Source of the DNA: Roseibium alexandrii DFL-11
Lineage (GTDB): Bacteria; Pseudomonadota; Alphaproteobacteria; Rhizobiales; Stappiaceae
Length of the DNA: 64,000 nucleotides
Reading direction: 5' to 3'
Assembly (NCBI RefSeq): GCF_000158095.2
Contig: NZ_CM011002.1
Coordinates: 4,687,703-4,751,702 of the forward strand
Shown here: piece by piece, positions 48,779 through 58,250 of the stretch
Layout: each line of letters starts with the position of its first letter
How positions within the stretch are numbered: position 1 is the stretch's first letter
Made by a program: the position numbers and the translations under genes
The notes under the pieces: generated by a model
What the model was told of the DNA's origin: nothing
Databases searched by the model: none
The model's input: the letters and a program-made list of their open reading frames with translations, nothing else

Positions 48779-49354
48779 TTACTCGGCTGCTTCCTGGGGT
48801 GTTTCTTCGGTTTTCTTTCCACCAAACAGGCCGCCAAGCCAGCCTTTCTTTTCCTTAGACGCGTCTGCGTCACCGAAAGCATCTGCACTTTCTTCAGCAT
48901 CTTCGGGTACGCTCGGGCCGACTTGTTCCGCAAAGGCGGTGAAAAACTCGCCAGCCAGGCGTTTAGCCGTGGAATCGATCAGGCGGGCGCCGAGCTGGGC
49001 GAGCTTGCCACCGACTTTTGCGTCCACCTCGTAGTGCAAAATGGTGGCGTCCGGTCCATCTGCTTCCAACTGGACCTTCGCGCCGCCGCGTGCAAAACCG
49101 GCCACACCACCGGAGCCTTCGCCCTCAATGCGATACCCGTTCGGCGGATCAAGATCGAGCAGTTCGACCTTGCCGCCGAACGTTGCTTTCACCGGGCCCA
49201 CCTTCAGCTTCACTTTGGCTTCCAGTTCGGTCTCGGAGTGCTTGATCAACTCCTCGCACCCGGGAATCGATGCCTTGAGAACTTCCGGGTCGTTCAGCGC
49301 TGCCCAAACCGTCTCACGGGGCGCTTCGATCCGTTGGCTGTCGGTCATTTGCAT
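48779..49354 (-). CDS. coxG: CO dehydrogenase accessory protein CoxG (SRPBCC fold)
   Basis: CoxG-family protein of 191 residues. The SRPBCC domain spans about 1-145 (IEAPRETVWAALNDPEVLKASIPGCEEL is the family start), followed by an acidic, low-complexity tail with a short glycine/Trp hydrophobic patch (KKGWLGGLFGG). CoxG links CO dehydrogenase to the membrane and quinones in other bacteria. Spacing to coxF is 23 bases. Order coxMSLDEFG is that of the classical operon. Confidence 0.92.
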   Translation of the reverse strand: MQMTDSQRIEAPRETVWAALNDPEVLKASIPGCEELIKHSETELEAKVKLKVGPVKATFGGKVELLDLDPPNGYRIEGEGSGGVAGFARGGAKVQLEADGPDATILHYEVDAKVGGKLAQLGARLIDSTAKRLAGEFFTAFAEQVGPSVPEDAEESADAFGDADASKEKKGWLGGLFGGKKTEETPQEAAE

Positions 49355-49377
49355 GGAATTATACTCCGTCTGTAATT

Positions 49378-50250
49378 TTAAATGTGATGAACGTCGGTTC
49401 CGCGTTGGCCCTTGCGGCGGACCATCACGAGTTCGGCAAGGATCGAAAGGGCTATTTCCTCAGGCGTGATCGCACCAAGGTCGAGCCCGGCAGGACCGTC
49501 TATCCGTTCAAGGCTCTCGTCGCTGATCCCCTTTTCGCGCAGCTTGGACTTCAGGTGGGCAATTTTCCTGTGGCTGCCGACAAAGGCGATGTGTTTCGAG
49601 TTCGCAGCAAGGGCGGATTCAAGCGCCGCCAAATCACCGCGCCCTTGTGTGGAGACCGCGAGGTAACGCTCGGCATTGCTGTTTTCGGGAATGTCAAAAC
49701 CGTCTTTGACTTCGCACTCTTGCGGAAATGTCTTGAGGTCCTCAAGGGAGGCATGAGCAATACACTCAAAGCCGATGTTCGGGCCCTGCTGCGCAAGGGC
49801 GACGGCCACAGGGCTCGCTCCGAGGATAACAAGTTTCGGTCGCGGCAGAACCGGTTCGACAAAGATGTCCATCGTGCCCTGGCTTGGGCACATGTTCCTC
49901 GCAAACTGTACCCCTTGCCGGTTGTCTCCGGCTTCAACGCCGAGTTCAGCCAGCAGGTCTTCCGGTTGGAGGGAAATCAGTTTTGGTTCGCCGTCTTCAA
50001 TGGCAGCCTTTGCAGCCTTGATTACAGCGGATCTTGCACAGCCGCCACCGATCCAGCCGCCTGCAATATGGCCATCTGCGGCAATCACGGCCTTTGCGCC
50101 GGCTTTCGCTGCGGTTACCGAAATGGTTCGGACGACTGTCGCCAGTGCATAGGGTTCTGCATCTTTTCGAAGTTGCTCCGCCAATGCAGAAACATCGGTA
50201 GCCGAGGCTTGTTGTGCAGCTCTCAGTGTTTCAGGGGCAGAGTGTTTCAT
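49378..50250 (-). CDS. coxF: XdhC-family maturation protein CoxF
   Basis: XdhC/CoxF-type protein of 290 residues, expected to help insert or sulfurate the molybdenum cofactor. The N-terminal XdhC domain has YALATVVRTISVTAAKAGAKAVIAADGHIAGGWIGGGC. The C-terminal Rossmann domain has VILGASPVAVALA and GPAGLDLGAITPEEIALSILAELV. The ATG at 50250 follows GGGAGAGACACCA. A codon five residues upstream (50265) and a longer frame to 50367 overlapping coxE are less likely. Confidence 0.88.
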   Translation of the reverse strand: MKHSAPETLRAAQQASATDVSALAEQLRKDAEPYALATVVRTISVTAAKAGAKAVIAADGHIAGGWIGGGCARSAVIKAAKAAIEDGEPKLISLQPEDLLAELGVEAGDNRQGVQFARNMCPSQGTMDIFVEPVLPRPKLVILGASPVAVALAQQGPNIGFECIAHASLEDLKTFPQECEVKDGFDIPENSNAERYLAVSTQGRGDLAALESALAANSKHIAFVGSHRKIAHLKSKLREKGISDESLERIDGPAGLDLGAITPEEIALSILAELVMVRRKGQRGTDVHHI

Positions 50251-50269
50251 TGGTGTCTCTCCCATCGCA

Positions 50270-51469
50270 TCACAGGCGTTCAAGATAAGGTTCGAGGGCG
50301 GCCAGACTGTCGAGGTTATGGGCTGGCGCAAACAGATCGACATGGGGCAGTGCGGCCTGCATTCCACCGGTCACCGGCTCGTAGCCATCCCAACCGATCA
50401 TGGGGTTGAGCCAGATGATCCGCTTGCAACGTTTGCGCAGGCGAGCCATTTCGTCGCCGAGCTGGTCCGGTGTGCCGGTGTCATAGCCATCGGACAGGAT
50501 CATCACGCAGGTTCGTGAGTGGATCACGCGGGCAGCGTGGGACCTGTTGAAGTCCGCCAGGGCCTCGCCGATCTTCGTCCCGCCGCCGATGCCCTGGGCC
50601 ATCAGCCCCATCCGGTCGAGGGCGCGCGTTGCATCCCGTTCTGAAAGTGCGGACGAAACATGGACAAGCCGGGTGTGGAACAGAAACGCTTCGGCTTCGC
50701 GGAAATTGTCGAGCAGGCCGTGCACGAACCGTGTGAAGACACCGGTGTAATTGCTCATCGACCCGGAAGCATCGAGAAGGATCACCAGACGGAGCTGACG
50801 CGTGCGCGGCCCCTTGCGGATCAACTCGATCGGTGTGCCTCCCTGGGCGATCGAGTGACGGATTGTCTTGCGAAGGTCGAGCCTCGGGCCCTTGCGCTTT
50901 TGCTTGTCCCGGCGCGTGAGGCGGATCCGCATGGCTCTGGCAAGTTTTTCCGCCAGCTCATGGGCCTTGGCCAGTTGTTCCGGGTCATGGATGTTGCGGA
51001 AGTCAGCCTTGCCGAGGTGGTCGGCAATGCTGGCGCCCTCCCGGCGTCCTGACGGTGTCTCGTCGCTGGGCTCGTCCTCTTCACCCGGAACCCTGTCGAC
51101 ATCGCCTGCAATGGTGTCCTGAGGCGGGCCTTGGGCATCAACCATTTCGCGGATGGTTTTCGTGGTCTTCCTGGAACTGCTGCCGGAGACCTTGATGCCC
51201 GATTTCACACCGCGTCCGAGCCAATAGGCATCGAACACGTCATCGAATTTGGTCCAGTCCGACAAGCGGCCGCTAAAAAGGGCCCTGAACGCTTCCTTCA
51301 GCCTCTGGGGACGTTTGATGATATCGGACCGAAGCAATCGGATTGCATCTTCCGTCTCGCCAAGCCCAACCTTGTACCCGCTGTCGCGTAAGGAACGCAC
51401 AAATCCGGCGAGGCGCACCCGGACTGCAGTGCCAAGATCGTCATGGCTTTCAAGATGGACAGAGGCCAT
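50270..51469 (-). CDS. coxE: VWA-domain maturation protein CoxE
   Basis: CoxE-family protein of 399 residues. The C-terminal half is a von Willebrand A domain with metal-ion-dependent adhesion motif DASGS at 233-237 (RLVILLDASGSMSNYTG), and the N-terminal half is charged with a linker around 115-150. It works with the AAA+ protein CoxD in making the Cu-S-Mo site. Adjacent to coxD with a three-base gap. Confidence 0.92.
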   Translation of the reverse strand: MASVHLESHDDLGTAVRVRLAGFVRSLRDSGYKVGLGETEDAIRLLRSDIIKRPQRLKEAFRALFSGRLSDWTKFDDVFDAYWLGRGVKSGIKVSGSSSRKTTKTIREMVDAQGPPQDTIAGDVDRVPGEEDEPSDETPSGRREGASIADHLGKADFRNIHDPEQLAKAHELAEKLARAMRIRLTRRDKQKRKGPRLDLRKTIRHSIAQGGTPIELIRKGPRTRQLRLVILLDASGSMSNYTGVFTRFVHGLLDNFREAEAFLFHTRLVHVSSALSERDATRALDRMGLMAQGIGGGTKIGEALADFNRSHAARVIHSRTCVMILSDGYDTGTPDQLGDEMARLRKRCKRIIWLNPMIGWDGYEPVTGGMQAALPHVDLFAPAHNLDSLAALEPYLERL

Positions 51470-51472
51470 GGC

Positions 51473-52357
51473 TCAGGCCACCTTTCCAAGAAGCCGATCC
51501 GTGACTTCCGGAGTAATACGGGCCTGGTCTTCGCGTGTCTTCAGAACGCAGACGAGAGTATCGAAAACCGTCTCACGCCGCTCATGCAGATTTTTTGTGC
51601 CAAGGCCGACAAGGGCAGCCGCCCAGTCGATGGTTTCGGCAACGCCCGGCACCTTCGTCAGGTCTTCCTTGCGCAACTTGCCCATCAGCTCGGCGATTTG
51701 CAGGGCAAGGGCAGTATCCAGTCCCTCCACCCGGCTTAAAAGAATGCGCGCTTCGCGGCTGGGGTCCGGGTAATCGACATAGTGATAAAGGCACCGGCGG
51801 CGCAGTGCATCGGACAGCTCCCGTGTTCCGTTCGAGGTCAGGATGACCCGGGGAATGCTTTTGGCTTCGATGGTGCCAAGTTCGGGAATGGAGACCTGAA
51901 AGTCGGACAGGAGTTCCAACAGGAACGCCTCAAACTCTTCATCAGCCCGGTCGACTTCATCGATCAGAAGGACCGGTGCCTTGTCTTGGCGGATCGCCGC
52001 AAGAAGGGGACGTTCCAAAAGATACTTCTCAGAAAACACCGCCTCTTCAACGGTTTCAGCGTTGTCGCCGGACCCCTCCCGAGCCTTGATGGCGAGGAGT
52101 TGGCGCTGGTAGTTCCACTCGTAAATGGCGTCGGAACGGTCAAGACCCTCGTAGCATTGCAATCGGATCAGATCCGTGTTGTCCAGCTTTGCGAGCGCTT
52201 TTGCGACTTCCGTTTTGCCGACCCCTGCTTCGCCTTCCAGAAGCAAAGGCCTGTTCAGCATCTCGGTGAGGAGAAGGGCCATGGCAAGGCCATCATCTGC
52301 AACATATCCGGCGCCAGCGAGCGCTTCGGCGAGCGTGTCTTTTGTCTGGGTCGTCAT
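51473..52357 (-). CDS. coxD: MoxR-type AAA+ ATPase CoxD
   Basis: AAA+ protein of 294 residues. Walker A GEAGVGKT near residue 42, Walker B VLLIDEVDRAD near 130, sensor 1 in RVILTSNGTREL, and an arginine finger in ALRRRCLYHYVDYP. In Oligotropha CoxD helps sulfurate and load copper into the CO dehydrogenase active site. Good GGGTGTTTTGG context only, so the start could shift by a few codons. It follows a 50-residue gene on the minus strand. Confidence 0.93.
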   Translation of the reverse strand: MTTQTKDTLAEALAGAGYVADDGLAMALLLTEMLNRPLLLEGEAGVGKTEVAKALAKLDNTDLIRLQCYEGLDRSDAIYEWNYQRQLLAIKAREGSGDNAETVEEAVFSEKYLLERPLLAAIRQDKAPVLLIDEVDRADEEFEAFLLELLSDFQVSIPELGTIEAKSIPRVILTSNGTRELSDALRRRCLYHYVDYPDPSREARILLSRVEGLDTALALQIAELMGKLRKEDLTKVPGVAETIDWAAALVGLGTKNLHERRETVFDTLVCVLKTREDQARITPEVTDRLLGKVA

Positions 52358-52590: not shown

Positions 52591-55011
52591 TTAGTCGTGT
52601 GCACCAAGATCCTTGGCTGCCTGCCAGACACGCCAAGCATCATGCGGCATCTGGATATGCGTGGAGCCCAGGAATTGGAACGCATTGTTGACCGCATTGG
52701 AGAAGGCCGGAACGCCGCCGACATTCGGGCTTTCGCCCACGCCTTTGGCCCCAATTGGATGATGCGGGCTCGGGGTGACCGTGTGATCGGTTTCCCAATG
52801 CGGCGTTTCCACGGCGGTCGGCAGGAAGAAGTCCATGAACGATGCGCCCATAACATTGCCCATTTCATCGTAACGGATCTCCTGACCCATCGCGATGGCG
52901 AAGGCCTCAGTCAGACCACCATGGACCTGCCCCTCGATGATCATCGGGTTGATGCGTGTGCCGCAGTCGTCGAGGGCGTAGAACCGCCGGGTCTTGGCGA
53001 CCCCGGTATCGACATCAATGTCCATGACACAGAAGTACGCGCCAAACGGATAGGTCATGTTCGGCGGGTCGTAGTAGCTGACAGCCTCCAGACCCGGTTC
53101 CAGGTTCGGCGGCGGCGCGTTGTAGGCCGCCCAGGCGATTTCCTTCATGGACTTGCGCGCTTGCGGGTTCCCCTTGACCTGGAAGCCGTCAACGTCCCAT
53201 TCGAGATCGTACTCGGAGACTTCCAGCATATGGGCCGCGATCATCTGGGCCTTGTTGCGGATCTTGCGGGCAGCCAGGGCGATTGCCGCACCGGCCACCG
53301 GTGTCGACCGCGATCCGTAGGTGCCAAGGCCATAGGGGGCGGTGTCCGTGTTGCCTTCCTCGACCATGATGTCGTCGGCGGGAATGCCGATTTCGGTTGC
53401 GATGATCTGGGCCCAGGTCGTCTCGTGGCCCTGACCCTGGCTTTTGGTCCCCATGCGCGATATCACCGAGCCGGTCGGGTGAACCCGGATTTCCGCGCTG
53501 TCGAACATGGCGACACCCAGAATGTCGCAGTTCTTGGACGGGCCGGCACCGACGATCTCGGTGAAGAACGAAATGCCGATGCCCATGATCTCGCGGGTTT
53601 CGCCGCGCTGGAAGGCTTCCTGCTTGGCCTTTTGTTCCTCGCGCAGCTGGCGGTAGCCGATGGTGTCCATCGCCTTTTGCATCGCGGTGTGATAATCGCC
53701 GCTGTCATACTCCCAGCCAAGCGCGGACTGGTAGGGGAACTGGTCTTGTCTGACGAAGTTCTTGATGCGCAGATCCGCCGGGTCCATGTCTAGCTTCTGG
53801 GCGAGGACATCCATGGCACGCTCGATGCAGTAGGCGGCCTCCGTTACCCGGAACGAGCACCGATAGGCAACACCGCCCGGCGCCTTGTTGGTGTAAACGC
53901 CATCCACGGTCAGGTCGGCTGTTGGAAAATCATAAGACCCGGTGACGATGTTGAAGAAACCCGCCGGCCATTTGGACGGATCGGCGCAGGCATCAAAACC
54001 TCCATGATCGGCAAGCACATGGACTTTCAGCCCGGTCACCGTGCCGTCGGCCTTGGCGGCCAGTTCCGTAGTCATATGATAGTCGCGGGCAAAAGACGTG
54101 GTGGAGAGGTTCTCCATCCGGTCTTCAACCCATTTCACCGGCACGCCGGTCACGATCGAGGCGACGATCGAGCAGATATAACCCGGATAGGCGCCCACCT
54201 TGTTGCCGAAACCGCCGCCGATGTCCGGAGCGATCACATGGATCTTGTGCTCCGGAATGGTGGACAGCAGGGAGGCAACCGTACGGATCACATGCGGCGC
54301 CTGGAAGGTGCCCCACAGGGTCAATTCTCCCTTCACCTTGTCCATTGATGCCACGCACTGGCAGGTCTCCAGCGGGGACGGATGGGTCCGGTGATAGGAG
54401 ATCATTTCCTTGATGGTCACATCGGCTTCTGAAAACGCCTTGGCGGTTTCCTCGCTGTCACCGACATGCCACTTGAAGATGTGGTTGTGATGGTCGCGCG
54501 GGCCATGGGCACCTTCCATCTTGCCTTCCAGATCTTCGCGCAGGACCGGGGCATCCGGATCCATCGCCTTGAACGGGTCGATCAGGACGGGCAGTTCCTC
54601 ATAGTCCACTTCGACCAACTGGATGGCGTCATCGGCTATGTAGCGGTTTTCGGCGACAACAAAGGCCACTTCCTGGTTCTGATACAAAACCTTGCCGTCG
54701 GCCAGAACCATCTGCACGTCCCCGGCCAGCGTCGGCATCCAGGCAAGGTTGACGCCCTTCAGGTCCTCGGCGGTCAGCACCGCGATCACGCCCGGAATTT
54801 TCAACGCTTCGGTCGCGTCTATCTTGGTGATGCGGGCATGCGGATAAGGCGAGCGGACAAAGTCACCGAATACCATTCCCGGAAGCTTGATGTCATCGAC
54901 ATACTGTCCCTGGCCCTGAGTGAAGCGAACGTCTTCAACGCGTTTGCGCTTGCAGCCCATGCCTTCTAGGGCCGCTTCGCGCTGTTCGCGTGTCGGGGTT
55001 ATGTCGTTCAT
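52591..55011 (-). CDS. coxL: Carbon monoxide dehydrogenase large subunit, form I
   Basis: Molybdenum-copper CO dehydrogenase large subunit, 806 residues, xanthine oxidase family. The active-site loop is AYRCSFR at residues 382-388 (53848-53868), the form I signature. Cys385 is the expected copper ligand, so this is a true CO-oxidising enzyme rather than a form II relative. Molybdopterin contacts in [15 protein letters not shown] and [17 protein letters not shown]. Catalytic Glu expected in [13 protein letters not shown]. The ATG at 55011 overlaps the coxS stop by four bases. A longer frame to 55371 lies over coxS and is rejected. Confidence 0.96.
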
Positions 55012-55517
55012 TCTGCAGCCTCCTGAAACTCGGTTCCGTTCAGCTTCGCCGCGGCGTACTGGATGGCCTTGACGATGTTCTGATAGCCGGTGCAGCGGCA
55101 CAAGTTGCCGGAGATCCCCATGCGGATCTCGTCCTCTGTCGGGTTGGGGTTCTCTTTCAAGAGCACATGGGCCCGCATGATCATGCCCGGCGTGCAATAG
55201 CCGCACTGCAGACCGTGCATCTGGCGAAAGCCTTCCTGAAGCGCGGACAAGGTGCCGTCGGCATTTGCCATGGCCTCGACCGTGGTCAGCTCCGCGTTGT
55301 TCGCCTGGACAGCAAAAACCGTGCAGGCCTTGACCGACATACCGTTCATCTCGATGGTGCATGCGCCGCAATGGGAGGTTTCACAGCCGATATGCGGACC
55401 GGTGATATCAAGGTCTTCCCGCAGGAAGTGGATCAGAAGCGTGCGCGGCTCCACGAAGCGCTGCACCTTCTTTCCGTTGACGGTCATAGTGACCGGGATT
55501 TGTTCAATATCGCTCAT
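55008..55517 (-). CDS. coxS: Carbon monoxide dehydrogenase small (iron-sulfur) subunit
   Basis: Two [2Fe-2S] clusters, 169 residues. Cluster II ligands are Cys45, Cys50, Cys53 and Cys65 ([14 protein letters not shown]...C). Cluster I ligands are Cys105, Cys108, Cys140 and Cys142 (QCGYCTPGM...CRC). It passes electrons from the Mo-Cu site to FAD on CoxM. 24 bases after coxM. Confidence 0.96.
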
Positions 55518-55541: not shown

Positions 55542-56408
55542 TCAGCTGCTTGCGTGCTCTGCTGCGCGGGCCAGTGCGCGTTCCAGCATCACGCCTGCCA
55601 TTTTCGTGCGGTATTCGGCAGGACCACGTCCGTCAGATGCCGGTTCCGTGATGGCTTCTGCTGCTGCAACGGCTTCTTTCACAGTCTCTGGATCCAAAGC
55701 GGACCCTGTAAGGATCTCGCTCGCCTCAGCAGCGAAGAGCGGTGTGTCGGCCACATTGGTGAGTGCTATTGAGCAGGATGCAACGGTGCCGCCGTTCATT
55801 GTGAGGAGGACCGCTGCGGCGGCGGTGGCGTAGTCACCCACCTTGCGTTTCAGTTTTTCATAGGCATAGCCATGGCCCGTCGCCGGTGTCGGGATCCGAA
55901 CCGCGATCAGGATTTCTTCCGGCGCCAAGGCCGTAAAATATGCGGCCTCGTAAAACTCGCGCGCGGCTACTTCGCGGTCGCCGTCCGGACCACTCAGGAC
56001 ATAGCTTGCATTGAGGCATTGCATAAGCGCCGGCATGTCATTGCCCGGATCGCCGTTTGCGACGTTTCCGCCGAGAGTGCCGAGATACCGGATTTGAGGA
56101 TCGGCGATCAGCAAGGATGTTTCGCGAATGATTGGAAGTTTTGCGGCAAGGAGATCCGAACTGATCATCTCGTGCTGGGTCGTCATCGCTCCTATGATGA
56201 TCGTTTCGCCGTCTTCCGAGATGCCCTTTAGGCTCTCGACACCGCCAAGATCGATCAGATGTTCCGGCGCGGCCATGCGCAGCTTCATCATTGGGATCAG
56301 GCTGTGGCCTCCAGAAAGGGGCCGGGCTTCATCGCCGTGTTCGGCCAGGATCGCCACTGCTTCTTTAACAGTCGCTGGCCGGTGATATGTGAATTCACCT
56401 GGGATCAC
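55542..56408 (-). CDS. coxM: Carbon monoxide dehydrogenase medium (FAD) subunit
   Basis: FAD-binding subunit of 288 residues, the usual CoxM length. FAD contacts in LSGGHSLIPMMKLRMAAPEHLIDLG and TLGGNVANGDPGNDMP. The start is GTG at 56408 (product begins MIPGEFTYHRP), after a strong GGAGGAGAAAGAC. The longer frame to 56594 would cross the promoter. First gene of coxMSL. Confidence 0.94.
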   Translation of the reverse strand: MIPGEFTYHRPATVKEAVAILAEHGDEARPLSGGHSLIPMMKLRMAAPEHLIDLGGVESLKGISEDGETIIIGAMTTQHEMISSDLLAAKLPIIRETSLLIADPQIRYLGTLGGNVANGDPGNDMPALMQCLNASYVLSGPDGDREVAAREFYEAAYFTALAPEEILIAVRIPTPATGHGYAYEKLKRKVGDYATAAAAVLLTMNGGTVASCSIALTNVADTPLFAAEASEILTGSALDPETVKEAVAAAEAITEPASDGRGPAEYRTKMAGVMLERALARAAEHASS

Positions 56409-56832
56409 GTCTTTCTCCTCCCTCATGCAGCCAAATCGGTTGGGCGTTGGTCCGAGATCCGGACAGGCCCTTGCGTCTGAGTACGGCGCTCTCCAACGCG
56501 CCTCATTTGACGAAGAGCGTCGCAGTTGCTGCGGTGCACTCACAAGGAAACCTGCACAAATGACGCAGGGGTTTGCACGGAATACGTTTGTCATTTCACG
56601 AATTACGTCACTACTGCTGACGCTTATTATGAAAAAATCGATATTTTTAGATTTGGTGTAGGGTCACGTTAATCTGAAAATTCAGCTAGTTAATTGAGTT
56701 GAGTTTCTAATTTACCTGTGGCTGTGCAGCGAGAAGCCAGAAAAATGGCACGTTTCACGAAATGCGGCCTTTGCACGCTTTTGTTGCATTGCGTGCTCGG
56801 TGTTTTAGCGAAGGAAAAACCGATATCCGTGG
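56409..56832. other. coxM upstream region (424 bases without a gene)
   Basis: No open frame here has a ribosome site or plausible product. The left half leads into coxM. The middle (56576-56612) carries tandem repeats that fit a LytTR site. The 56630-56680 stretch is AT-rich and could hold the promoter or a regulator contact. A further TTTCACGAA (56753-56761), like the repeat at 56594-56602, lies closer to coxC. Confidence 0.7.
56583..56612. promoter_or_regulatory. Candidate LytTR-type operator for coxMSL
   Basis: TACGTTTGT (56583-56591) matches the published LytTR half-site consensus [TA][AC][CA]GTTN[AG][TG] at every position. TACGTCACT (56604-56612) matches seven of nine. Start-to-start distance is 21 bases (12-base spacer), the standard LytTR layout. 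A wider repeat, CACGGAATACGT and CACGAATTACGT (56576 and 56597), has the same 21-base period. A LytTR regulator is encoded just beyond. Confidence 0.68.
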
Positions 56833-58101
56833 TTATTGAGCGGGCGCTGGGTCAGGCACCGGTGTTTTGGTTTCTGACATCGTCGTGAGCTGGGATTTGA
56901 CACGGCTCCAGCGGGAGCGGCTGACTGGTACGGTCTGCCCGGCGTCGCCCTGTAGGACCAGAAGGCCGCCGTCACCGGACCTCTTGAAGGATGCCACCCG
57001 TGCCAGATTCACAATGTGGCTGCGATGGACCCTGTTAAAGGCTTTACTGTCCAGCTGACGCTCGGCCTCGCTTATGGACAAGGGGCAGAAATACTCTCGC
57101 GATCCGTCGAATAGCTTCGTGTAATGCGCGTCTGCATGGATGGCCACGATCTCTGTTGCAGCGATCTGCGCCTTCTGGCCGTCGTGTTCGATTGGCAGCA
57201 TTCTTTTTGCCGTCAATTTCTGCGAGCGGACGGGGGTGGCGGCGGACTGCAAACCATGGGCAGTGCGGTTGGAAATCTGCTCTTGCTTGGAAAAAGAGTT
57301 GGCTCTGGGTACTGCTTCAGCACTCGCAGCGCTCACTGGCGCTACAGTTTGGAGAATAAGATCATCATCGAAATGGGGAGCCTCATCCACTCTAAGAGGC
57401 TGTTCCGGGACAAGCTTGAGTAGAAAGAGGCCGGAGACCAGAAAAGACACACAGGAGACCAGAATGGCGAGGGTTCCCGGATTTAGGGCAGGAGCCAATG
57501 AGGGTGTTGGAGCTGCAATCGGTTCAACGGTCAGGCCAGCCATCGCAATGTAATGCATGGCAGAGATCGCAAGCGCCATCACGACCGCAGAAACAAACAT
57601 CGGCGGTCGTCGTCCGGGGCCGAACAAGAGCCAGAGTGCAAGGCCCGAGGCATTGAAAGCAATCAAAAAGCTGGCCAGCACATAAGCCGTGTCATGAGAC
57701 ATACTCAACGACAAATGTAGGGTATACATGCCCAAGTAATGCATCGTGCATATCCCGGCCCCCATGACAAAGGCAGCGATTCCAAGGCGAATGGGCGTCA
57801 GTTGCCTATTGCTGGCCGCAAACACGCCGATCCCAACAACAAGCACACAGACGAGGAACGAAAGAAGGGTCGGCAATACAAGGAAGTTTGTCACGACGGG
57901 CAGGCGGGCGGCGAGCATACCAACAAAATGCATCGACCAAATTGCCAGTGCGAGTGTGAACGCGGCTCCAGCCAACAACAGACGCCGACGGGGTTCTGTC
58001 GACGTGCGGACTTGGACGGCCAAACCCAAACCAACATAGCTGCCCTGAAATGCCATTATCAGGGAAAGCGCCACGAGCCAAGGCTCGTGCGTCACTGTCA
58101 T
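56833..58101 (-). CDS. coxC: MHYT-LytTR membrane regulator CoxC
   Basis: Regulator of 422 residues. The membrane part has seven or more helices with three MHYT-type motifs, MHFV (57-60), MHYL (120-123) and MHYI (182-185), thought to bind copper and sense small gases such as CO. The C-terminal 100 residues are a LytTR DNA-binding domain (IVAIHADAHYTKLFDGSREYFCPLSISEAERQL...FNRVHRSHIVNLARVASF...VPVSRSRWSRVK). The same architecture and position (before coxM) is that of CoxC/CoxH in Oligotropha. The ATG at 58101 follows GGGAGGACGCTCACA. Confidence 0.9.
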   Translation of the reverse strand: MTVTHEPWLVALSLIMAFQGSYVGLGLAVQVRTSTEPRRRLLLAGAAFTLALAIWSMHFVGMLAARLPVVTNFLVLPTLLSFLVCVLVVGIGVFAASNRQLTPIRLGIAAFVMGAGICTMHYLGMYTLHLSLSMSHDTAYVLASFLIAFNASGLALWLLFGPGRRPPMFVSAVVMALAISAMHYIAMAGLTVEPIAAPTPSLAPALNPGTLAILVSCVSFLVSGLFLLKLVPEQPLRVDEAPHFDDDLILQTVAPVSAASAEAVPRANSFSKQEQISNRTAHGLQSAATPVRSQKLTAKRMLPIEHDGQKAQIAATEIVAIHADAHYTKLFDGSREYFCPLSISEAERQLDSKAFNRVHRSHIVNLARVASFKRSGDGGLLVLQGDAGQTVPVSRSRWSRVKSQLTTMSETKTPVPDPAPAQ

Positions 58102-58200: not shown

Positions 58201-58250
58201 TGCAACTCATTCGCAATAAGCTTGACACTTGCGAATGAGTTGCAATATCA
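58201..58250 (+). promoter_or_regulatory. sit promoter with inverted pair of Mur/Fur-type boxes
   Basis: TGCAACTCATTCGCAA (58201-58216) and its exact reverse complement TTGCGAATGAGTTGCA (58229-58244) flank a TTGACA (58222-58227). A -10-like ATATCA sits at 58245-58250, 17 bases on. Each arm resembles rhizobial Mur/Fur boxes (TGCAA-N-T-N-ATT-N-GCA type). Manganese-bound Mur would shut off sitABCD. Confidence 0.75.

What the first reader, a model, noticed from the sequence alone, without database searches (positions are those of the whole stretch)
56576..56612. LytTR half-site pair just before coxM, next to an MHYT-LytTR regulator
TACGTTTGT fits the LytTR half-site consensus at all positions. 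A second half-site starts 21 bases on, with a longer repeat of the same period. The regulator gene ends 220 bases away, in the position of CoxC in Oligotropha. This gives a concrete model: a membrane CO/copper sensor binding one site to switch on coxMSL. A readable operator for CoxC is, to my knowledge, not described.
Basis: partly seen in the sequence, partly recalled or inferred. Interest (0 to 1): 0.72.

Follow-up and report, generated by a model that had tools for sequence, protein, structure and literature searches.

The report
CoxC operator at the coxM promoter
In front of the genes for burning carbon monoxide lies a conserved row of 13-base boxes beside a promoter, very probably the place where the membrane CO sensor CoxC grips the DNA, and similar boxes are found in related bacteria, including the species in which CoxC was studied.

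Summary
The 21-base repeats are real, but TACGTTTGT is not the site: the equivalent 9-mer fits the pattern in 2 of 60 loci, the window included, and the pattern is no commoner than chance in the window (27 found, 38.8 expected). The conserved element is on the other strand and reaches further: three direct boxes, CGTAATTCGTGAA, CGTATTCCGTGCA, CGTCATTTGTGCA (56607-56553, minus), exactly 21 bases apart, followed 7 bases on by a promoter-like TTGTGA-18-GACGCT. Across Alphaproteobacteria the box is CGC[A/C]NTTCGTGCA and it tracks coxM: 14 of 289 class genomes have form I coxL, all 14 carry boxes before coxM (nine strong, five weaker), and none of the other 275 hits at E<=0.001. A CoxC operator is already published: in Afipia, before coxB, CoxC is a CO-relieved, copper-dependent repressor (PMC11347149). 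So 'not described' is wrong, and 'switch on' is unproven and against that precedent. New here: the operator before coxM, also in Afipia, and a motif, trained without PcoxB, that recovers the EMSA-tested PcoxB fragment in a different register from the published one. Binding by CoxC here is inferred; the sign of regulation is open.

The parts
56833..58101 (-). coxC: MHYT sensor fused to a LytTR DNA-binding domain (422 aa from ATG 58101)
   Evidence: Pfam MHYT and LytTR; 49% identity to Afipia CoxC
56754..56766 (-). auxiliary CoxC-type box CGCATTTCGTGAA, 159 bases upstream of box 1; the best single box in the window (17.0 bits)
   Evidence: PWM scan; a further box of at least 10 bits on either strand in 28 of 37 Stappiaceae gaps examined
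56621..56633 (+). box 0, weak inverted copy (CGCTTATTATGAA) forming a dyad with box 1
   Evidence: score 4.4 here; at exactly this offset 25 of 57 loci score at least 6, at each other offset tested at most 1 of 57
56595..56607 (-). box 1, CGTAATTCGTGAA
   Evidence: triplet scores 33.2 bits leave-group-out, 0 of 100 shuffles; best R1 hit in the genome, E 1.7e-7 (this locus is in the training set)
56574..56586 (-). box 2, CGTATTCCGTGCA
   Evidence: same triplet, 21 bases from box 1
56553..56565 (-). box 3, CGTCATTTGTGCA
   Evidence: same triplet, 21 bases from box 2
56540..56545 (-). predicted -35 (TTGTGA), starts 7 bases after box 3
   Evidence: TTG at +7 in 33 of 33 Stappiaceae and 6 of 19 outgroup loci scored
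56516..56521 (-). predicted weak -10 (GACGCT), 18-base spacer
   Evidence: xAxxxT at the 18-base spacer in 33 of 33 Stappiaceae scored (chosen after seeing the data, related loci); no transcript data; a standard consensus scan found no promoter here
55542..56408 (-). coxM, start GTG 56408
   Evidence: Pfam FAD_binding_5, CO_deh_flav_C; start conserved
55008..55517 (-). coxS
   Evidence: Pfam Fer2_2
52591..55011 (-). coxL, form I (AYRCSFR motif, recalled as the form I signature)
   Evidence: NCBIfam CO_dehy_Mo_lg 1476 bits, cut-off 991
48779..52357 (-). coxD (51473-52357), coxE (50270-51469), coxF/XdhC-like (49378-50367) and a coxG-like ORF (48779-49354), same strand, likely one operon with coxMSL
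   Evidence: Pfam AAA, VWA_CoxE, XdhC; coxG by reading the ORF and recall, not domain-searched; operon inferred
   Evidence: equivalent 9-mer fits in 2 of 60 loci; pattern at or below chance level in the window

Best explanation
The element is the operator through which CoxC controls the coxMSLDEFG operon. Three LytTR boxes (CGYANTTCGTGCA-like), two helical turns apart, lie on one face of the DNA directly upstream of the -35 of the coxM promoter. Following the Afipia precedent, membrane-held CoxC binds the boxes when CO is absent and keeps the operon low, and CO bound at the copper-loaded MHYT domain releases it. Shown here: the boxes, their conservation and linkage to coxM, the fixed promoter-like layout in the family, and that the motif recovers a fragment to which CoxC has been shown to bind in Afipia. 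Inferred: binding by this CoxC, the promoter, and the sign of regulation (repression about 0.6, activation about 0.3, within the view that CoxC binds).
For: Leave-group-out PWM: 59 of 61 loci (one a duplicate) beat all 100 shuffles on the sense strand. Class scan: 9 of 289 genomes hit at E<=0.001, all 9 directly before coxM; form I coxL is in 14 of 289, and the other 5 have weaker boxes before coxM. Scored for triplets in the 250 bases before coxM, those 5, the 8 foreign class hits and G001 and G014 each beat all 100 shuffles (15 of 15). Two of the 9 class hits are training operators (own, and G193 identical to L080). Family: 31 of 87 genomes hit at E<=0.001, all among the 44 with a coxC match, none of the 43 without (18 of the 33 training sequences are from this family). 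The boxes stay with coxM where no coxC lies beside it (G352, G001, G014). In Afipia the two best separate triplets of an 11.2-kb locus are the coxC-coxM gap (30.0; 26.9 held out) and PcoxB (28.3), the next non-overlapping one 16.6; PcoxB was not in training and is bound by CoxC in EMSA (PMC11347149). In PcoxB TTG also lies at +7 and TATCGT follows after 18 bases (read from the sequence printed).
Against: No binding or expression data for this organism. Only box 3 fits the published strict pattern TTNNNGCN; boxes 1 and 2 miss it by one base each. Outside Stappiaceae often only two boxes are strong and the third is weak (for example L144, L145, L148, L151), and TTG at +7 is seen in only 6 of 19 outgroup loci. 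13 of the 44 coxC-bearing family genomes give no model match at E<=0.001. L021 (1/100) and L065 (25/100, site partly masked) do not pass the shuffle test cleanly, and L023 passes only through boxes elsewhere in the gap, though degenerate boxes are visible in the L021 and L023 alignment. The genome has two other LytTR genes. A site wholly upstream of the -35 is unusual for a repressor. The published third PcoxB change, which abolished residual binding, lies outside our three PcoxB boxes.
Confidence: 0.62

Rival explanations
1. CoxC binds the same boxes but activates coxM: bound CoxC recruits RNA polymerase at a promoter with a poor -10, as RcoM and most LytTR regulators do.
For: Boxes end 7 bases before a fixed TTG, with a weak -10 of the form xAxxxT after 18 bases in 33 of 33 Stappiaceae scored. 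PMC11347149 (discussion) says RcoM1 and most LytTR regulators bind upstream of -35 and activate.
Against: The one tested CoxC represses PcoxB in E. coli and leaves DNA when CO is added (PMC11347149). By the register proposed here PcoxB has the same layout, so layout alone does not decide.
Confidence: 0.28
2. Another regulator binds: one of the two other LytTR proteins of the genome, or, for the GTCAG-N5-CTGAC dyad next to box 1, a second regulator such as a LysR-type protein (T-N11-A; recalled).
For: Two further LytTR matches in the genome. A dyad-like pattern left of box 1 in 33 of 57 loci, including loci where box 0 scores poorly.
Against: Matches at E<=0.001 in the family and class scans fall only in genomes that also have an MHYT-LytTR match. 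The same motif marks the EMSA-proven CoxC target. In many Stappiaceae the dyad is explained by an inverted CoxC box.
Confidence: 0.08
3. One reading: a canonical LytTR pair headed by TACGTTTGT on the plus strand.
For: The 9-mer fits the pattern and a related TACG recurs after 21 bases.
Against: Pattern no commoner than chance in the window; equivalent 9-mer fits in 2 of 60 loci. In 17 Stappiaceae loci of 21/21 spacing only the CG shared with the box edge is nearly invariant there.
Confidence: 0.02
4. The repeats are the remains of coxC coding sequence or an RNA feature (terminator, leader) rather than an operator.
For: In some relatives the boxes begin at the coxC stop codon (L049, L063, L096). 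A consensus scan lists a terminator-like stem on the minus strand at 56569-56551, overlapping box 3 (3 such sites in 56300-56900 against 1.0 in shuffles).
Against: Here box 1 lies about 225 bases past the coxC stop. Boxes persist before coxM where coxC is elsewhere, and none is found behind the coxC of L064, which has no coxM nearby. The left arm of that stem is not kept in L003. Two-turn phasing is a protein-DNA trait.
Confidence: 0.02

Closest known systems
CoxC operator of Afipia carboxidovorans OM5 at PcoxB (Durante-Rodriguez et al. 2024, PMC11347149)
   Same: MHYT-LytTR regulator beside coxMSL; three direct repeats; by the register proposed here the same 13-base box, 20-21 spacing, TTG at +7 and 18-base spacer
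   Different: Published operator lies before coxB, not coxM. Published repeats (TTACCGCC, TTTGGGCA, TTGCGGCA) start 29 and 26 bases apart, and the first scores -10.7 with our matrix. coxC lies downstream of that operator in Afipia but upstream of the operator here.
RcoM1 operator of Paraburkholderia xenovorans (TTCNNGCA triplet, as quoted in PMC11347149)
   Same: Triplet of 8-base direct repeats with 12-13 base spacers; core TTC..GCA
   Different: RcoM1 has a haem sensor domain and activates; CoxC is membrane-bound and copper-dependent
Canonical LytTR sites (pair of 9-base direct repeats spaced 10-13, as quoted in PMC11347149)
   Same: Direct repeats two turns apart
   Different: Three boxes, 13-base conserved unit, and an inverted extra box in many Stappiaceae

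Membership tests
CoxC (MHYT-LytTR CO regulator) | MHYT repeats with Met/His/aromatic motifs plus C-terminal LytTR | tested here: met
   Pfam; M57H58F59, M120H121Y122, M182H183Y184 invariant among 5 aligned
CoxC (MHYT-LytTR CO regulator) | Gene beside form I coxMSL | tested here: met
CoxC (MHYT-LytTR CO regulator) | Copper-dependent CO response | not testable with these tools
   bench assay needed
CoxC/RcoM-type operator | Three direct repeats about two helical turns apart | tested here: met
   21/21 spacing in the window; best spacing 19-22 (the range allowed) in relatives
CoxC/RcoM-type operator | Every repeat fits TTNNNGCN strictly | tested here: not met
   box 3 fits; box 1 (TTCGTGAA) and box 2 (TCCGTGCA) each miss by one base. 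Functional membership is not settled by this
CoxC/RcoM-type operator | Bound by the regulator | not testable with these tools
   EMSA needed
CoxC repressor operator | Operator overlaps the -35 box | tested here: not met
   box 3 ends 7 bases before the predicted -35; the -35 itself is a prediction
Canonical LytTR half-site WMMGTTNRK | Conserved match at the named place | tested here: not met
   2 of 60 loci

The most novel reading that the evidence does not exclude
The main, ancestral target of CoxC in Alphaproteobacteria is the coxM promoter, in Afipia too, where it was overlooked. The true CoxC box is CGC[A/C]NTTCGTGCA in two to three copies 20-21 bases apart directly before a TTG-18-xAxxxT promoter, so the published PcoxB repeats are out of register, and the repressor-by-overlap model needs revising.
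Probability: 0.55. Interest if true: 0.62.

Novelty: new member of a known kind. Interest (0 to 1): 0.52.

Why it matters
By PMC11347149, CoxC is the first MHYT regulator shown to sense a gas, but its DNA code rests on one promoter. A conserved 13-base box, found before coxM in all 14 form I coxL genomes of a 289-genome class sample, gives a readable code, a better-supported target (coxM itself) and a testable correction of the published register. It also makes the repressor-or-activator question direct, because the layout is typical of activators. Control of CO oxidation matters for a widespread energy source of marine and soil bacteria (general knowledge).

Tried and rejected
Rejected: TACGTTTGT as the operator. 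A consensus -35/-10 scan found no promoter in 56300-56900; the promoter was proposed only from conservation. A search for a CoxC triplet upstream of coxC itself found nothing notable (best 5.3 bits), so autoregulation by this box is not supported here. A wider regulon in the own genome was not found: the next R1 match has E 0.037 and is partial; in the window no triplet not overlapping the operator exceeds 15.4 bits. A LysR-type explanation for the dyad was considered; in many Stappiaceae an inverted CoxC box explains it better. Helical phasing of the auxiliary box: 26 sense boxes lie 143-149 or 155-159 bases upstream of box 1 once two mis-registered loci (L016, L026) are corrected; mean resultant at 10.5 bases 0.58 for all, 0.38 for the 9 distinct distances (replacing the uncorrected list). 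The loci are related, so no claim is made.

Rows dropped and limits. L021, L023, L065 and L096 were left out; those four plus L034, L067, L081, L016 and L026 were left out for uncertain register or duplication (one search shows TTGAG at the same aligned place in L021, L023, L016 and L026). Six of the 44 family loci (L035, L036, L041-L044) had no recognised coxM in the stretch fetched and were not scored. In one search, seven loci (L016, L021, L023, L026, L034, L067, L081) have a best triplet with a weak member or at another place. The matrix was trained on all loci, not held out. The family and class model scans used stricter filters that lose weak matches. G270 has a second coxL copy whose upstream region was not examined.

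Full report
What was claimed and what is there. The window lies in a 5.46-Mb Roseibium/Labrenzia-like genome (the genus is inferred from named relatives, the closest CoxC matches being 92 and 89% identical). On the minus strand run coxC (MHYT-LytTR), coxM, coxS, coxL, coxD, coxE, an XdhC-like coxF and a coxG-like ORF. coxM starts at GTG 56408, a start shared by the 38 family loci in which coxM was recognised (of 44 fetched), so the gap is 424 bp. TACGTTTGT is at 56583-56591, but its pattern is no commoner than chance in the window (27 found, 38.8 expected), and it is not conserved (2 of 60 including the window).

The real element. Aligning 38 coxC-coxM gaps of the family shows one strongly conserved block. 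Read on the coxM strand it is three direct 13-base boxes: 56607-56595, 56586-56574 and 56565-56553. With the RcoM1 motif from the literature as an independent yardstick, the window triplet scores 15 of 18, reached by 11 of 400 shuffles (both strands, spacing 18-22) or 1 of 400 (sense, 21/21). That yardstick alone does not find the block in every relative. A position matrix scored leave-group-out over 61 loci (39 Stappiaceae including one duplicate, 22 others) beats all 100 shuffles in 59; L021 gives 1/100 and L065, which has masked bases, 25/100, and L023 passes only through boxes elsewhere in its gap. In 17 Stappiaceae loci of 21/21 spacing the commonest base averages 0.81 in boxes and 0.51 in spacers.

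Linkage to coxM. A sequence model of 33 operators (18 from this family, 15 from elsewhere) gives the window site as the best in the own genome (E 1.7e-7, in training; next 0.037). Loci outside the training set that hit include L083 (31.5 bits), L048 (25.4), L067 (22.2) and L081 (18.3). Over the 87 family genomes, 31 have a match at E<=0.001, all among the 44 with a coxC match and none of the 43 without; 13 of the 44 have none at that threshold. Over 289 genomes of the class, 9 match at E<=0.001 and all 9 lie directly before coxM. Two of these nine are training operators, the own site and one identical to L080. Form I coxL (E<=1e-200) occurs in 14 of the 289: the nine plus five more, which have weaker boxes before coxM (13.0-20.5 bits, filters off). 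Scored for triplets in the 250 bases before coxM, all 13 foreign class loci and G001 and G014 beat all 100 shuffles (15 of 15), though in several only two boxes are strong. All 14 also have an MHYT-LytTR match. In G352 and G001 the MHYT-LytTR gene, and in G014 an MHYT match, lies roughly 9 to 13 kb away, yet the boxes still precede coxM (the G014 model match is weak, E 0.022). L064 has coxC but no coxM match in its locus and no box match behind coxC.

The link to known CoxC binding. PMC11347149 (seen: abstract and outline, introduction, EMSA methods, part 1 of 2 of the discussion, and passages; not the figures or supplement) reports that Afipia CoxC binds PcoxB through three direct repeats TTNNNGCN, represses it, and is released by CO in a copper-dependent way. 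In the Afipia plasmid locus the matrix ranks two separate triplets above the rest: the coxC-coxM gap (30.0; 26.9 held out) and PcoxB (28.3), the next non-overlapping one at 16.6. PcoxB was never used for training. In PcoxB the boxes are CGCAGTTCATGCG, CGCCGTTGGTGGA and AGTCGTTTGGGCA, 21 and 20 bases apart; the third is weak alone (1.9 bits). The published repeats, located through the primers, start 29 and 26 bases apart (spacers 21 and 18, matching the paper's '18-21 bp'), and the first scores -10.7. The published PcoxB1 change also alters the conserved G of our second box and PcoxB2 alters our third, so those losses fit both registers; the further loss with the third published change is not predicted by ours. 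No coxM-side operator is mentioned in the passages found for coxM.

Promoter and extra boxes. TTG begins exactly 7 bases after box 3 in 33 of 33 Stappiaceae scored, followed after 18 bases by xAxxxT in 33 of 33. These loci are related and the spacer was chosen after seeing them. In PcoxB the printed sequence gives TTGATG at +7 and TATCGT after 18. Among 19 outgroup loci TTG at +7 is seen in 6. An inverted box at offset -26 scores at least 6 in 25 of 57 loci, all Stappiaceae; each other offset tested has at most 1. In this window it is weak (4.4). An auxiliary box is found in 28 of 37 Stappiaceae gaps.

How it most likely works. CoxC sits in the membrane, binds the boxes in front of the coxM promoter when CO is absent, and lets go when copper-bound CO changes its shape. 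Binding is strongly suggested but not shown for this organism. The sign is less sure: the Afipia experiments in E. coli say repressor, while boxes wholly upstream of -35 and a poor -10 would suit an activator.

Novelty. A CoxC operator is not new. The coxM-side operator, its class-wide conservation, the 13-base box and the changed register were not found in the searches made (one relevant paper read in part, the rest seen as listings only). Older work on cox transcription in Oligotropha did not appear in these listings, so an earlier mapping of a coxM promoter cannot be excluded.

Noticed in passing
L048 5250-5301 (Sinorhizobium meliloti AK83 plasmid pSINME01): A full CoxC-type operator (25.4 bits, not in training) follows an MHYT-LytTR gene, but no coxM or coxS match is found in the 9-kb locus; the next annotated gene is a short EAL-domain ORF. 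Either a relic of lost cox genes or a CoxC paralogue with another target.
   Followed up: partly
window 58201-58244: A perfect 16-base inverted repeat (TGCAACTCATTCGCAA / TTGCGAATGAGTTGCA) between coxC and the divergent ZnuA-like metal transporter gene; possibly a metal-regulator box. It overlaps the start of the ORF listed at 58229, whose true start is probably further in.
   Followed up: no
L005, L009, L013, L014, L020, 139-155 bases upstream of box 1: Pairs of CoxC-type boxes on opposite strands (sense at -155, antisense at -139) near the end of coxC. Sense auxiliary boxes of the family lie 143-149 or 155-159 bases upstream of box 1.
   Followed up: partly
L045 6224-6276 (Afipia pHCG3): A CoxC-type triplet in the coxC-coxM gap of the very organism in which CoxC was characterised, not mentioned in the passages of PMC11347149 found for coxM.
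   Followed up: yes
loci, within 20 bases before box 1: GTCAG-N5-CTG(A/T)CG-like dyad in 33 of 57 loci, also in outgroups where the inverted CoxC box scores poorly (L066, L069, L046, L047); may mark a second regulator.
   Followed up: partly
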